In this document: piece by piece, positions 48,555 through 54,479 of the stretch | Numbering within the stretch: position 1 is the stretch's first letter | Layout of the letters: each line of letters starts with the position of its first letter | Origin: Ectocarpus siliculosus | Taxonomy: Eukaryota > Sar > Phaeophyceae > Ectocarpales > Ectocarpaceae | Reading direction: 5' to 3' | Length of the DNA stretch: 55,922 nt | Assembly: GCA_000310025.1 (NCBI GenBank) | Contig: FN648938.1 | Location: 1 to 55,922 of the forward strand | Translations under genes and position numbers: made by a program | Notes under the pieces: model-generated | What the model was told of the DNA's origin: nothing | Seen by the model: only the letters and a program-made list of their open reading frames with translations | Database searches by the model: none

Positions 48555-48767
48555 AAGGTACTGGGTAGAGAGAGATCGGAACGGTTTTTAATGTGAAGAC
48601 AACAACAACAACAAGGTATAGGCAAGAAATTGCGGGGAAGTTTCATCGGGAGATTGGATGAGCACGGCGGTGGTGATGACGTATTATTGGAGTACAACTC
48701 AGCAGCAGCAGCAGCAAGAAGCAAAAAAAAGAGCGTGCTATTAGTCGCTCTTGATATGATGGGAGGC
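48555..48767. repeat. Remnant of the (AAC)n dispersed repeat at the LTR element insertion site
   Basis: It shares ACGAAGGTACTG, GGAACGGTTTTTAAT and GTGAAGACAACAACAACAAC with 4398-4575. It continues into a CAG run. The LTR element inserted just after it. Confidence 0.5.
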
Positions 48768-49253
48768 TGTTGGGTGGCTTGGTGCGCCCGGCGCAGTTGT
48801 AGACGGCAAAAATAAAAGAACCGCGCGGCGAGTTTGCCGGCAACGATAAAATACAGTAAACTGCCCACGGGTGTGGTAACCCGCCGCATCTATGATGTTC
48901 CGGAGCGTGATAGCTCTGATGTGTTGACGCTGGTGCTGTGATAGCTGTTGTGATGGCGTGATAGCCTAGAGGCGTGAAAGCCTGGCAGCGTGATAGATGG
49001 TGGATAGGTAGTATGGGCACGGGCGTGATAGCCCAGGGCGTGATAGCCGGGAAAAAGGAAGATGAATAAATCAAGGGCACGTGGCCAACACCGTTGCTGA
49101 CACGCATACCCAGAAAACAATAATATGTGGCAAAGATGGTACCACCATTCCCCCAATTTATTACAACTGCGGAACCCCCAAAATCCCCCGCTCCATCTTC
49201 TAGGAACATTCCTCGGTTGCAATAATCTGTCAATGCTGTGAGTACATCCAACA
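48768..49253 (-). repeat. 3' LTR of the gag-only element
   Basis: 486 bp, same as 53976-54461. It contains about seven copies of GCGTGATAG or close variants (CTATCACGC in element orientation) between about 48904 and 49045, likely a U3 regulatory array. Confidence 0.95.
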
Positions 49254-51688
49254 GCCCCCCTGCTCGCTGCATTGTCAAGATTATACCCGAACTTGCTTAT
49301 ATTATGCATCACACGAAACCCATCCCAAAAACTCCAGAAATCAATGTCATTGTGCAACAGTCGTTTCTCCTCCCATCCTCTTGCAACAACCATAAACCAT
49401 TAAACCAGAGAGACTAGTTCGAACTTCCATTTGTCGCAAACGAACCAGAAACACCTACTACCAGAATCTCCATCGGTCTCCATTGTATCCAGAATCTCCA
49501 AAGATCAAAACATTCACTAAAAACCATTAAACCAGAAACACTTGATTGCAATTCCCATCGGTTCCAAACCATAAAACCAGGAACACCACCAACAATTTCC
49601 ATCGGTCGCTCATGAATTTCAAATTCCCAATATCAAATCATCCAAAACTCAAATCGTGGAAACAACCGCAATGGGTTATATCAGGAACAAATGAAAACGA
49701 ACACAAATGCAAACACATCCAACACCGTCCGGGACAAATCACTTTCCGAGGAGACTTCAAATCCACACGTAGCACAAGAATCATGATTGCACAAAAATGC
49801 TCGACTCCACAATAATACCTCATCCTCATAACAACACGAAGACCATTAATACAAAAAAACCCTTTCGAGTATTTTCTATCGGCCAATCTTGAATTCAATG
49901 TCCAACAAACACGATGAAATTACAAACCAGAATACCTCAGCAACATGGGAGCAACACCAAACCTGCCTCAGAAACAAAATCTCCTTGAAACATGTGACAT
50001 CGCTACGTGCCCTGCCTGCGTGGTTGACAGCGCGAGGTACATTGGAGTCATGGAGTGCTACAAAGATAGGCCCCCCTTCTTCTTTCATTATTTTTCCTCA
50101 AACACAAACAAACCTCCGTTCGTTCAGTTTCCTACAATACCTTTTATTTTCTTCCTGCATACCCTACCCATGCATGTCTGGCTGCGGCCCCCCTTCTCCG
50201 AACACCAGACGTGAAGGGATCAACCCTCTACTTGATAAACGCATCTTGTGACATTTGGGTACTGGAAACAACCCCAAAATCGCAACCTGCATTGTCAAAT
50301 CCCGAACTCTGCAAATCGAACATCGAAAACAGACGAAACATTCCATTCTTCGTAACATTGCTGTAGTTAATTGTCATGACACACCAATTCCCCCCCCAAT
50401 GACAATTGACAACAGCATCGAAGACATAGCATTTTATATAAATAGAGGGGTTACCCCTGGCCGATGGTACATGGAGAGGCGCGCCAAACACACAGGGGAC
50501 AACAACAATGTAGATAGAGCCTTCTACCTAAAAAAAATGCCACACGCAGAAGGAAAAAACAAAAACAACAAGCACAACCATAGTAGCGGCCTTCGCGACA
50601 TGGCCGCAAGGATTCAAACCAATAACCCTATTCCATCATCATGATCCTTTCTGAACAGTTTCAACGCAGCCTTCATGCCGTCAAATATTCTTGCAGGTGC
50701 AATTTCAATCGCAAAATCAAATCCGAAAGAACGCCGAAACAAGCCAAAACCAAAAACCAACCAAAAAAACAATTCCGGATCCACAAACCCGCATACATCT
50801 GTCACTAAACCGCCGTTGCCCGTGGTTTCCATCCCCGCTGGGCGATGCATCCTTCTCTGGAAATTATCTCAAACCGTCAACAGCACAGAACCATTCTCAG
50901 ACAAATACCAAACAAGCGGCAGCGCTGCATCAGAAAAACATCGGAATGGGGACGGACAATTCTGAGGAAAACAGCTTCAAAGAGTAGGCACAAAAACTCA
51001 AACGAAACAATGTTACAATTTCTTGGACGACAGAAACGAGTATTCGGAAAGCACATAGGCCCTAACAATCACTCCTGCCAACTCCTTGCTCCAGTATAGT
51101 CGTTGAGCACCAAACTAAACAGTGCGCACACGCAAATCGGTGCCGCCGTTGCTGTCCACGAAACGGATAGAAAACTAAACAAACATATAGACAGCCCCCC
51201 GCTGTCACATCCCGAAACATACCCCTTACATTTCCAGAGTTCATGCAAGAACACTCCGCGAATATCAAAATGCCAACTAACAAACATGGAGACAGCCCCC
51301 CTGCAAAGGTAGCTGTTCATATGGGGAAACAAAAACAAATCGATTGCTGTTCATGCCCTCTAGAATCATGGTCACACATGACATCCCCCCCCCCATGATT
51401 CTGGATGTACATAAAAAACAGCAACAAAGAAGAAAAAACCAGTGCAAAAGTAAAACGCGCTGCCAGAAAGAAAGGCAAAAAAAACTAAACTAAACACGAA
51501 ACCCACATTGTTAGATCAGACTCGATGTCGTCGCGCGATGCAAGGCGCGTCACGAGCCCAAACGGAGTGCCCCGCTCGGAGGGGCGACCCCCAGCAGGTT
51601 GTTCTTGATCTCCCACATGCACCCCTCCCAAACATCCTGTTCTCCACCGCCCTCCATCTCGTCGCCCCCCAGCTCGCCTTCCCCCAGC
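49254..51688 (-). other. Noncoding 3' spacer of the gag-only element
   Basis: About 2.4 kb between the gag stop and the 3' LTR. It is A/C-rich on the plus strand. It holds a degenerate array at about 49385-49620 (ACCATTAAACCAGAAACAC and TCCATCGGT words) and two internal copies of a GACAGCCCCCC motif (about 51193 and 51291) that resemble the polypurine tract at the LTR edge. The frames are short and none shows pol motifs. Confidence 0.7.
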
Positions 51689-52532
51689 TCACCGGTCCGT
51701 ATCATCCCAGGCCAAATCATCGGCTTGCCGTTCAATACGCGCCGTCGGAGATGGATGTGGTCCATCGGCCTCGGAGGTCGGCACCGATTTGCGTGTCGGC
51801 AACGGCGCGGCGGTAGTAACAGCGGCGGGCAGCGGAGCGGCGGTAGTCCTCGTCGCAGTCATCCGCGGGTCCGGCAGCGCGGCGATCATCCGGCGAAGGA
51901 TGCAGGCGGCACGGGTGCCCCGGGACTTGGCGGCAGCGGCGGTGGTGCGGCGGCGGCGGCGGCGGCGGCGGCTACAGGCCCAAGGCGCAGCGGTGGCAGC
52001 GGGCTGCGAAGCGGCGATGGCCCCGGGTCCCAACTCCCTGGGGAGGGTGTTCCCTTGTTGCTTGGCAGTCAAACTCAAAACGGGTTGGGGAAAGTAGCCA
52101 GCGCGGTGGTGGAAACCGTCAACATCCATTTGTTCGGCACGACCCAACACAGCCACATCACACTTAGACGCAACACCTTCCCTCGCATCAAACATCCCCG
52201 CACTCGTCCCCGAGTCTCCCTGCAACTGCTCACCACCTTTGGGTGTTGACATCCTAGTGTGCCATACTGGGGCTTGAAAGGTCACAGCAGGCTTCACCAC
52301 AGGAACCACAGGAACATCAGGCACAGACATACCAGCAACGGGAACACCAGACACCTCCCCATCACTAACAACTCTAATCTCATTTCCAGACACAGAATCA
52401 GACTCGCCTAGAGAATTCACACTACGTGTGAGGAAGAGACGAAGAGGGGCGCCACTTGCTGGAGGAGTGTCGCCCGGAGGTGGAGAGGGGGTCGCCGTCG
52501 AGGAGGCAGAGGTCGTTGGATTAGCGCCGATG

Positions 52533-52582
<50 letters not shown>

Positions 52583-54097
52583 AGTCGCCGGCTGAGTAGC
52601 GGTGCTAAAGGCCTCGTTGAAGACTCGCTGCTCATCAGCGTCGGGCCCTGCAGAACGGGGACAGAACGGGCGGCCCCGACCCCAGCTTGCCCCTTGGTCG
52701 AGTTGGTGCAGCTGCTCTCGATATGATCCGCCCGACAAGCGCCCCGATTCTTGCCCCCCGGCCTGAGGAAAACCTGGTCCCCGCATACCGTCCCTCTCGC
52801 GAATGAACGCCATGAAGTCGTTGTAGTGGAACAAGAAGTCCTTGCGAAGTTTATGGTAGTCTGGGGTGTTGTGGGAGGAGTTCGCTCCGTGAACCTGGCA
52901 GAAGAAGGCACCTCTCTGCTCATGAGATGGTCCGCCATCCGCTCCCGCAGCAGCTGCTCTCCTCATGCCGCCGTCCCGGCCTGCGCCGGCAGCGACGGGC
53001 GCATGCCTCGTGTCCTCGATCCCCTCCCCACACCTCCGTTTGATCCTCTGCTCGTGCTCGACCAGCCTCAGCGTCTCTTCCAGAGTACCTCTCGAAAGCA
53101 TGGGGTGGAACAGAATACGGTCTTTGACATCGTCGTACATTGGGAGCAAGCCACGTGCAAAGTGTCTCGACATTAACGTCTCCTCTCGATTGTCCCCACA
53201 AGACTGTAATTGCATCCACACAGTATTCGCCCTTCCCCAGTAGTCGACCAGAGTCTCTCCATGCTTCTGTCTAAGGCAGTTCCAAGTGCCGTCCAGGATT
53301 TCTCTCTCATGCGTCCTGTTTGTAGTGTAGTAGGACTGAAACACTCTCCACCCTGCTTGTGGACTCTCTGAAGCTAGTATCTGGTCTAGTATAGGTTGAA
53401 CGTTGATTTTCGTGATCAAGCACATCCAGACTCTCGTGGCCTTTCGAACACTTTCATCGCCATACCTCTGCCGCAACCAAGTCTTATCGACGTGCAACGA
53501 ACCCACAGGAATCTCTTCTCCTCTCATGATCTCTTCAAGACCCTCTGCATCCATCCACCCTGAGAAACAACTCGTAAAAATTCGGAACGCGACAGTCACA
53601 CTTCGATCCTTCAAGAAAGCATCATTCCACTCAGGTACTTCGACTCTCTCTCTCAGCTTCAACTCTATGGGCTGGGAACTAGACGTGCCTGAGCGGACGT
53701 CATGTCCCGGAGTCTGGGAGGCGAAGTTGGCAACCCGGCGGAGGAGGTCGACAAGGGCGATAGTTGGATCTTGTTCCCCTCCATCCGCGGCTGCTTTCGT
53801 TCCTCCCTGCTGGTCCACATCGGGGAGGTTCAACGAACCTCGTCCTTCCCCCCCGTTGTCTTCCCCGTGGGGAGAGGAACTAGTCCCTGGTCCCCGCGGA
53901 GGTCTTCGTCCATCTCCTCCAGCCGTCTTATTCGCGCAGACACAGCAGCCACTTTCTTGATCTATTACGCTAGCGTGTTGGGTGGCTTGGTGCGCCCGGC
54001 GCAGTTGTAGACGGCAAAAATAAAAGAACCGCGCGGCGAGTTTGCCGGCAACGATAAAATACAGTAAACTGCCCACGGGTGTGGTAACCCGCCGCAT
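51689..54097 (-). CDS. Gag of the non-autonomous LTR element
   Basis: The 802-codon frame ends at 51689. Its first 40 codons lie inside the 5' LTR, so the true start may be further in. Residues about 160-350 (FRIFTSCFSGWMDAEG, WLRQRYGDESVRKATRVW, AGWRVFQSYYTTNRTHER, GETLVDYWGRANTVWMQLQ, RGLLPMYDDVKDRILFHPM, LEETLRLVEHEQRIKR) have the helical order of Ty1/copia-type Gag capsid regions. At about 400 FCQVHGANSSHNTPDYH is a knuckle-like C..H.....H.....H arrangement instead of the usual CCHC. A poly-Gln run (about residues 505-525, CAG repeats) and Pro/Ala-rich tail follow. Gag assembles the particle that packages element RNA. The frame is intact, so the protein could still be made. Confidence 0.85.
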
Positions 54098-54461
54098 CTA
54101 TGATGTTCCGGAGCGTGATAGCTCTGATGTGTTGACGCTGGTGCTGTGATAGCTGTTGTGATGGCGTGATAGCCTAGAGGCGTGAAAGCCTGGCAGCGTG
54201 ATAGATGGTGGATAGGTAGTATGGGCACGGGCGTGATAGCCCAGGGCGTGATAGCCGGGAAAAAGGAAGATGAATAAATCAAGGGCACGTGGCCAACACC
54301 GTTGCTGACACGCATACCCAGAAAACAATAATATGTGGCAAAGATGGTACCACCATTCCCCCAATTTATTACAACTGCGGAACCCCCAAAATCCCCCGCT
54401 CCATCTTCTAGGAACATTCCTCGGTTGCAATAATCTGTCAATGCTGTGAGTACATCCAACA
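53976..54461 (-). repeat. 5' LTR of the gag-only element
   Basis: Same sequence as 48768-49253, including the GCGTGATAG array. In element orientation it runs TGTTGGATGTACTC to CCACCCAACA. The gag frame starts inside it. Confidence 0.95.
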
Positions 54462-54479
54462 GAGGCAACGATTTATGGT

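What the first reader, a model, noticed from the sequence alone, without database searches (positions are those of the whole stretch)
48768..54461. Young, complete, gag-only LTR retrotransposon
Two apparently identical 486-bp LTRs with TGTTGG/CCAACA ends, a perfect GAGGC duplication, a polypurine tract and an intact 802-codon Gag frame, but no pol anywhere in 5.7 kb. Gag-only terminal-repeat elements are known from plants; one in an algal-type genome, recent enough to have identical LTRs, implies a partner element supplying reverse transcriptase and integrase. Why Gag is kept intact without pol is an open biological question.
Basis: partly seen in the sequence, partly recalled or inferred. Interest (0 to 1): 0.75.

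Follow-up and report, generated by a model that had tools for sequence, protein, structure and literature searches.

The report
Gag-only copia retrotransposon with identified partner
A brown-algal jumping gene that has lost its copying and inserting enzymes has still spread, and a hybrid copy elsewhere in the same genome points to the relative that most likely lends it those enzymes; the kind of element is already known.

Summary
The element is real: identical 486-bp LTRs, a GAGGC duplication, an 802-codon frame on the minus strand, and no reverse transcriptase or integrase core found. It is not one broken copy. In the 189-Mb assembly, 15 of 18 loci examined are two-LTR copies of 5.6-5.8 kb, none with room for pol, mostly with perfect 5-bp duplications. 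Two corrections: the frame is Gag plus scraps of copia Pol (a DSGTSA protease stub, an integrase zinc-finger remnant), so it is an internal-deletion derivative; and this copy's Gag is open but atypical (Tyr where 16 of 16 readable relatives have the last Cys of a CHHC motif; a locally shifted tail). The nearest relative with pol is a copia family sharing the PBS region, PPT and LTR ends, with Gag 45-50% identical. One copy on another contig has this family's body and U3 but the partner's R-U5, as strand transfer between co-packaged RNAs would make. That points to the partner directly, though it is one locus. Pol was probably lost late, so a kept Gag frame need not mean selection. Gag-only LTR elements are already reported in plants and in the brown alga Ectocarpus. 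New member of a known kind.

The parts
53976..54461 (-). 5' LTR (486 bp; U3 about the first 192-203 bases if the chimera reading is right)
   Evidence: identical to the 3' LTR; junction in chimera L042
48768..49253 (-). 3' LTR (486 bp)
48763..48767 (.). target-site duplication GAGGC (3' side of the element)
54462..54466 (.). target-site duplication GAGGC (5' side of the element)
53948..53975 (-). primer-binding-site region CGCTAGCGT... directly after the 5' LTR; shared with the partner family; primer not identified (no TGG start)
51689..54097 (-). open frame, 802 codons: Gag plus Pol scraps; starts inside the 5' LTR
53147..53350 (-). capsid-like core, weak Retrotrans_gag match (residues 250-317)
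   Evidence: below cut-off; about 50% identity to partner Gag
52853..52900 (-). CHHC motif of Gag (CQVHGANSSHNTPDYH), last Cys replaced by Tyr in this copy only
52199..52237 (-). protease scrap GGEQLQGDSGTSA (partner: GSEQWQADSGASA)
52043..52207 (-). gag-preintegrase / integrase zinc-finger scrap, frame residues 631-685
   Evidence: 40% identity over 65 columns to the partner's Pol, E 4e-8 in a five-sequence comparison
49254..51688 (-). non-coding interior, 2.4 kb; no Pfam RT, RNase H or integrase in 37 of 38 frames
49254..49261 (-). polypurine tract AGGGGGGC at the 3' LTR; sequence around it shared with the partner
51191..51200 (-). internal copy of the PPT-LTR junction word GGGGGGCTGT
51292..51301 (-). 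second internal copy of GGGGGGCTGT
50854..51407 (-). two stretches (about 372 and 72 bp) shared at about 73% and 88% with another LTR family (L048-L050)

Best explanation
A non-autonomous, Gag-retaining Ty1/copia retrotransposon made by deletion of most of pol, multiplied in trans by a pol-bearing copia family of the same genome ('group 2'). Most likely steps: its RNA is made from the 5' LTR and packaged in particles with group-2 RNA and Gag-Pol; group-2 reverse transcriptase copies it from the shared PBS and PPT; group-2 integrase inserts it with a 5-bp duplication. Shown by sequence: structure, copy family, shared cis signals, the partner family's protease, integrase and RT pieces, and one inter-family chimera. 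Inferred: packaging, which Gag builds the particle, current activity, that any single group-2 copy is complete, and that group 2 is the only helper.
For: Family: 40 full-length LTR matches at 97-100%, the window's two included (40 of 157 candidates scored, so a lower bound); 20 loci with at least 2.1 kb of the interior (40 of 156 candidates scored). Of 18 loci examined, 15 have an LTR pair; 12 of the 15 have a perfect 5-bp duplication by script, and a 13th (L042, TGCAC) once its true LTR end is read. Element lengths are 5619-5713 bp in 14, and 5777 bp in L042 to that true end (the script gave 5454 because it matched only part of the LTR). 28 flanks of 14 copies show no similarity between copies. 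Partner: L052 has LTRs 99.8% identical over 524 bp, a Gag frame, a QADSGAS protease motif, Pol_BBD (E 1e-9) and an integrase core (rve E 7e-6 there, below cut-off; 2e-9, above cut-off, in L044); L058, tied to the family by a 156-bp 100% overlap with L052 and 151 bp at 97% with L054, has RVT_2 (E 4e-38). Window Gag residues 46-490 are 45% identical to its Gag (E 2e-136). LTR ends, PBS region and PPT region are near-identical. Chimera L042, 5' LTR: 60 of 60 informative sites up to position 192 are window-type; from 204 to the LTR end 165 of 166 are partner-type (the exception is a one-base indel); after the LTR 44 window-type sites, then 2 unassignable and 1 partner-type column at the ragged end of the alignment. 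Its two LTRs are 99.6% identical, and the 3' one also has the window-type first 203 bases and aligns to the partner LTR to its end. Among 40 scored of 161 candidates no other locus has this LTR (next best 90%).
Against: Gag of the two families is only about half identical, so a closer pol-bearing parent may exist in assembly gaps or in other strains. None of the 27 group-2 Gag matches has one of the 150 scored RVT_2 matches (of 519 candidates) within 15 kb; the RT was seen only in one further copy (L058), and L052's own RT stretch reads N. The chimera is a single locus. A gene conversion of a parent's 5' LTR followed by transposition could give the same product.
Confidence: 0.78

Rival explanations
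1. The family is mobilised by its own close, pol-bearing parent (about 90% identical or more), now lost or hidden in assembly gaps; group 2 is only a cousin and the chimera an occasional accident.
For: Two of three pol scraps look as constrained as Gag (pS 0.52/pN 0.21 over 29 codons; 0.69/0.13 over 13; the third 0.21/0.27 over 18), so pol was probably lost well after the split from group 2 and a pol-bearing parent once existed; N runs occur in 6 of 57 loci, and in L058 fetched later.
Against: Gag and LTR searches of the assembly listed only this pol-less family and group 2 (best candidates only); the chimera used an R-U5 identical, bar one indel, to that of a present-day group-2 copy.
Confidence: 0.3
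2. A single pol-deleted copy, or a segmental duplication, with no independent mobility.
For: The ORF carries scraps of pol, so it did arise by deletion.
Against: 15 two-LTR copies of one structure, 12-13 of 15 with their own 5-bp duplications, unrelated flanks in the 14 copies compared.
Confidence: 0.02
3. The chimeric LTR of L042 arose by DNA-level conversion of a parent's 5' LTR by a group-2 LTR, and that parent then transposed; no shared particle is needed.
For: Reverse transcription would spread a converted 5' R-U5 to both LTRs (established knowledge of LTR elements, recalled).
Against: The tract would have to end by coincidence within the 14 bases at the LTR-PBS border (between chimera positions 522 and 537), which an intermolecular first strand transfer predicts. 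Most LTR recombinants in Arabidopsis Onsen bursts fit the first template switch in R (PMC5668417, passages).
Confidence: 0.15
4. Gag is kept by selection because the element must supply its own Gag in cis.
For: Capsid-core dN/dS 0.17 against the partner (dS near saturation), 0.31 over the whole alignable Gag; 6 of 19 copies keep the full frame; open-frame diverged copies L040 and L056 have pN/pS 0.62 and 0.48.
Against: Two of three pol scraps show a similar pattern, so most constraint may predate pol loss; frame-broken copies L041 and L057 are just as low (0.44, 0.58), while L047 and L043 reach 0.81 and 1.29, on small counts; 13 of 19 copies have broken or altered frames, though many single-base indels may be read errors.
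Confidence: 0.25

Closest known systems
TR-GAG elements of plants (Chaparro et al. 2015, seen only as a citation; PMC8704663, passages)
   Same: two LTRs, single Gag frame, no pol, likely helped by a related complete copia element
   Different: brown-algal host; the frame here also holds protease and integrase scraps; 2.4-kb non-coding interior
Gag-only Copia families of Ectocarpus (Copia-N1_Ec32, Copia-11_Ec32; PMC12477816 section 5)
   Same: copia family with one ORF related to the gag of complete elements, in a brown alga
LGA, large GAG-related elements of Ectocarpus siliculosus (described in PMC3145265, passage; its source, the genome paper, was not held)
   Same: LTR element with a Gag-like frame and zinc-finger motif; the passage mentions no pol
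   Different: reported frame about 400 aa with a C-terminal zinc finger; here 802 codons with the CHHC motif at residue 400
Recombinant Onsen copies of Arabidopsis (PMC5668417, passages)
   Same: LTR recombinants formed in R during the first template switch
   Different: within one family there; here between a pol-less family and a copia family with Gag only about half identical

Membership tests
TR-GAG type element | two LTRs with TSD and a PPT | tested here: met
TR-GAG type element | single ORF encoding Gag | tested here: met
   Pfam alone below cut-off; small Pol scraps in the same frame
TR-GAG type element | no RT, integrase core or RNase H | tested here: met
   Pfam on the ORF and 37 of 38 interior frames; the 15 two-LTR copies are 5619-5777 bp long
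TR-GAG type element | primer-binding site matching a tRNA | tested here: inconclusive
   conserved region after the LTR but no TGG start; primer not identified, no tRNA search of the genome made
TR-GAG type element | transposition | not testable with these tools
   only inferred from independent insertions and identical LTRs
Ty1/copia superfamily (ancestry) | integrase before RT in the pol-bearing relative | tested here: met
   Gag-protease-integrase in L052, integrase in L054 overlapping L058, RVT_2 downstream; read in pieces from three copies
Ty1/copia superfamily (ancestry) | own copia RT | tested here: not met
   none found in the window element; it is a derivative, not an autonomous member
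Copia-N1_Ec32 / Copia-11_Ec32 | 80% identity over 80% length to the library sequence (the paper clusters at 80%) | not testable with these tools
   supplementary files not available

The most novel reading that the evidence does not exclude
A long-lived two-partner system: the Gag-only family supplies Gag that co-assembles with the partner's Gag-Pol, RNAs of the two families are routinely packaged together, and the pol-less RNA carries extra plus-strand start sites (two internal copies of the PPT-LTR junction word, one also found inside another LTR family) that help it compete for the borrowed enzyme.
Probability: 0.15. Interest if true: 0.65.

Novelty: new member of a known kind. Interest (0 to 1): 0.42.

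Why it matters
The helper of a Gag-only element is commonly inferred from similarity alone, as in the Arabidopsis case I saw (PMC8704663, passages). Here one genomic copy appears to record a joint replication event with a partner identified by sequence, so the helper question becomes testable in a brown alga. It also cautions that an open Gag frame need not mean selected Gag when pol was lost recently.

Tried and rejected
Rejected: one-off deletion or segmental duplication; RT or integrase hidden in the interior (37 of 38 frames scanned: none; one 46-codon frame left out). Led nowhere: Rfam and tRNA scans of the window (none); Gag against PDB sequences (none) and against phage records (none); a tRNA primer for the PBS (looked at by eye only). 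The interior segment shared with L048-L050 was aligned without finding a function. Selection on Gag was tested and frame survival and stays inconclusive. In one search a fourth block (27 codons of Gag tail) was aligned out of register (15% identity) and is not used. Genome-wide counts are lower bounds because the search scores only its best candidates.

Loci L044 and L046 join this family, inverted, to group 2 beside the partner's LTR through CGCTAGCG. This may be nested insertion with a CGCTA duplication or joining through the palindromic PBS start; I could not decide and do not use it as evidence.

Confidence was lowered from 0.80 to 0.78 because the distance test shows the RT link rests on one copy.
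Full report
What is there. On the minus strand, 54461 down to 48768, lies a 5694-bp LTR element. Its two 486-bp LTRs are identical (0 of 486 differ), flanked by GAGGC on both sides. The frame 51689-54097 is open for 802 codons and starts inside the 5' LTR. Pfam sees only a weak Retrotrans_gag match at residues 250-317 (E 0.011, below cut-off). The 2.4-kb interior downstream has only short frames (38 of at least 45 codons, longest 133); 37 of them scanned against Pfam gave no RT, RNase H or integrase hit.

Host. The assembly G000 has 189,456,909 bases in 492 contigs; the window is the start of contig C368 and ends where an N run begins. The EsV-1-7 cysteine motif, which PMC12477816 says has proliferated in brown algae and is otherwise mostly known from giant viruses (passage), gives 150 of 150 scored matches above cut-off (880 candidates) and none in 14 control genomes. 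I infer a brown alga; nearness to Ectocarpus is a guess from genome size, and the species is not established.

A family, not a lone copy. The LTR finds 40 full-length matches at 97-100%, the window's two included, among 40 scored of 157 candidates. The interior finds 20 loci with at least 2.1 kb. Of 18 loci examined (window and L031-L047), 15 have an LTR pair. Lengths are 5619-5713 bp in 14; L042 measures 5777 bp to its true LTR end (the script's 5454 came from a partial LTR match). None has room for pol. 12 of 15 have perfect 5-bp duplications by script, and L042's is perfect (TGCAC) at its true end; L039 and L043 show none. LTR pairs of five copies (window, L032, L035, L037, L039) are identical without gaps; the pair with most mismatches (L043) has 10 and 15 gap columns. 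Flanks of 14 copies (28 flanks of up to 500 bp) do not resemble one another.

The frame holds Pol scraps. Against the Gag-Pol of the nearest pol-bearing family (group 2), residues 46-490 align at 45% identity (E 2e-136), 442-568 at 42%, and 631-685 align to the region before the integrase core (FHxRAG; 40% over 65 columns, E 4e-8 in this five-sequence comparison). Just before the last lies GGEQLQGDSGTSA, matching the partner's GSEQWQADSGASA. Between these two scraps about 185 partner residues are missing, and nothing matching the partner's Pol was found after the second. The element therefore descends from a copia Gag-Pol element by deletion.

How intact is Gag? Of 19 copies read, 6 keep a frame open to the same C-terminus (window, L033, L037, L039, L040, L056). 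In this window copy the last Cys of CQVHGANSSHNTPDCH is Tyr, while 16 of 16 other copies in which the motif could be read have Cys (L045 and L057 were not readable in frame). Three single-base insertions near the tail occur in the window copy and in none of 17 others aligned. Many single-base indels are private to single copies and could be assembly errors, so frame counts are soft.

The partner. L052 has LTRs 99.8% identical over 524 bp, Gag, a protease motif, Pol_BBD and an integrase core; its later part reads N. L058, which overlaps the family by 156 bp at 100% with L052 and 151 bp at 97% with L054, encodes a copia reverse transcriptase (RVT_2, E 4e-38). The order integrase then RT is copia-like, read in pieces from three copies; no single complete copy was read. 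One search lists 27 Gag matches of this family at 44-51% identity (59 of 1945 candidates scored for all families together); close copies exist (L053 is 99.8% identical to L052 over 2.9 kb). Window and partner share the LTR ends, CGCTAGCGT...GATCAAGARAGTGGC after the 5' LTR, and GCAGCGAGYAGGGGGGCTGTTGG at the 3' LTR: the signals a borrowed reverse transcriptase and integrase would need. Against this, none of the 27 Gag matches has one of the 150 scored RVT_2 matches (519 candidates) within 15 kb; the RT was seen only in L058.

The chimera. L042 (contig C11) carries the window family's body and PPT. Its 5' LTR is window-type at 60 of 60 informative sites up to position 192, partner-type at 165 of 166 sites from position 204 to the LTR end (the exception is a one-base indel), and window-type again from the PBS on (44 sites, then 2 unassignable and 1 partner-type column at the ragged alignment end). 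The 3' LTR was not classified site by site but is 99.6% identical to the 5' one, with the same 203-base window-type start. Among 40 scored of 161 candidates no other locus has this LTR (next best 90%). Minus-strand strong-stop DNA made on a group-2 RNA (R-U5) and transferred to the 3' R of a window-family RNA would give exactly this. Most LTR recombinants of Arabidopsis Onsen fit the same step (PMC5668417, passages), and HIV-1 first strand transfer can be intermolecular (PMC5651808, abstract). Conversion of a parent's 5' LTR followed by transposition is possible but needs the tract to end by chance at the LTR-PBS border.

Why Gag is kept. Against the partner the capsid core has dN/dS 0.17 (dS 2.2, near saturation) and all alignable Gag 0.31. 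But the pol scraps, presumably useless after the deletion, show a similar excess of silent change in two of three blocks (pS 0.52/pN 0.21 over 29 codons; 0.69/0.13 over 13; the third block of 18 codons 0.21/0.27). So most divergence from the partner probably came before pol was lost. Within the family pN/pS is 0.62 and 0.48 for open-frame diverged copies L040 and L056, but also 0.44 and 0.58 for L041 and L057, which have a stop, and 0.81 and 1.29 for L047 and L043; the near-identical copies have few changes, most of them nonsynonymous. Selection for Gag since the loss is neither shown nor excluded.

Internal PPT words. GGGGGGCTGT, which spans the PPT-LTR junction, occurs three times in the window, all in this element: at the 3' LTR and at 51191-51200 and 51292-51301 (expected 0.14; 0 of 100 shuffles reach 3). 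Sixteen of the 17 family loci L031-L047 have at least three matches and L047 has two; L049 and L050 of another LTR family have one inside and one at the 3' LTR, L048 has one. They may be extra plus-strand start sites or relics; untested.

What is known. Gag-only LTR elements are known in plants (TR-GAG), with transposition seen in Arabidopsis ddm1 (PMC8704663, passages). [quoted passage not shown] The element is a member of this known kind and may already be in the Ectocarpus library, which I could not read. In nine paper searches (titles and abstract beginnings only) I saw none reporting a partner identified by a chimeric LTR for a Gag-only element; that is a limited search.

Noticed in passing
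L044:6200-6240 and L046:6308-6350: Inverted joints between this family's 3' LTR end and a group-2 LTR end through the palindrome CGCTAGCG (start of the PBS region), on two contigs with different other ends. Nested insertion with a CGCTA duplication and PBS-palindrome joining are both possible.
   Followed up: partly
L048-L050: A further LTR family (LTRs about 300 bp, about 5.3 kb in L049) with a zinc-knuckle ORF (zf-CCHC, E 0.011, below cut-off); no pol recognised in the two L049 frames scanned. It shares two stretches of non-coding interior with the window element.
   Followed up: partly
window 51123-51145 and 51779-51801: Inverted repeat of 23 nt (91% complementary), one arm in the Gag tail and one in the interior; both arms found by pattern in 16 of 19 copies (L040 lacks the interior arm by this pattern; L056 and L057 were fetched without the interior).
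   Followed up: partly
window 48900-49060 and the same place in the 5' LTR: The LTR contains several short GTGATAGC-like repeats (minus strand GGCTATCACGCC); the partner LTR has a diverged version. Possibly regulatory sites.
   Followed up: no
L039:525-1277 and L045:388-1125: Partial tandem copies: an LTR preceded by the end of the interior, as recombination between LTRs would leave.
   Followed up: no
window 55922: The window ends exactly where an N run of the assembly begins (L002).
   Followed up: no
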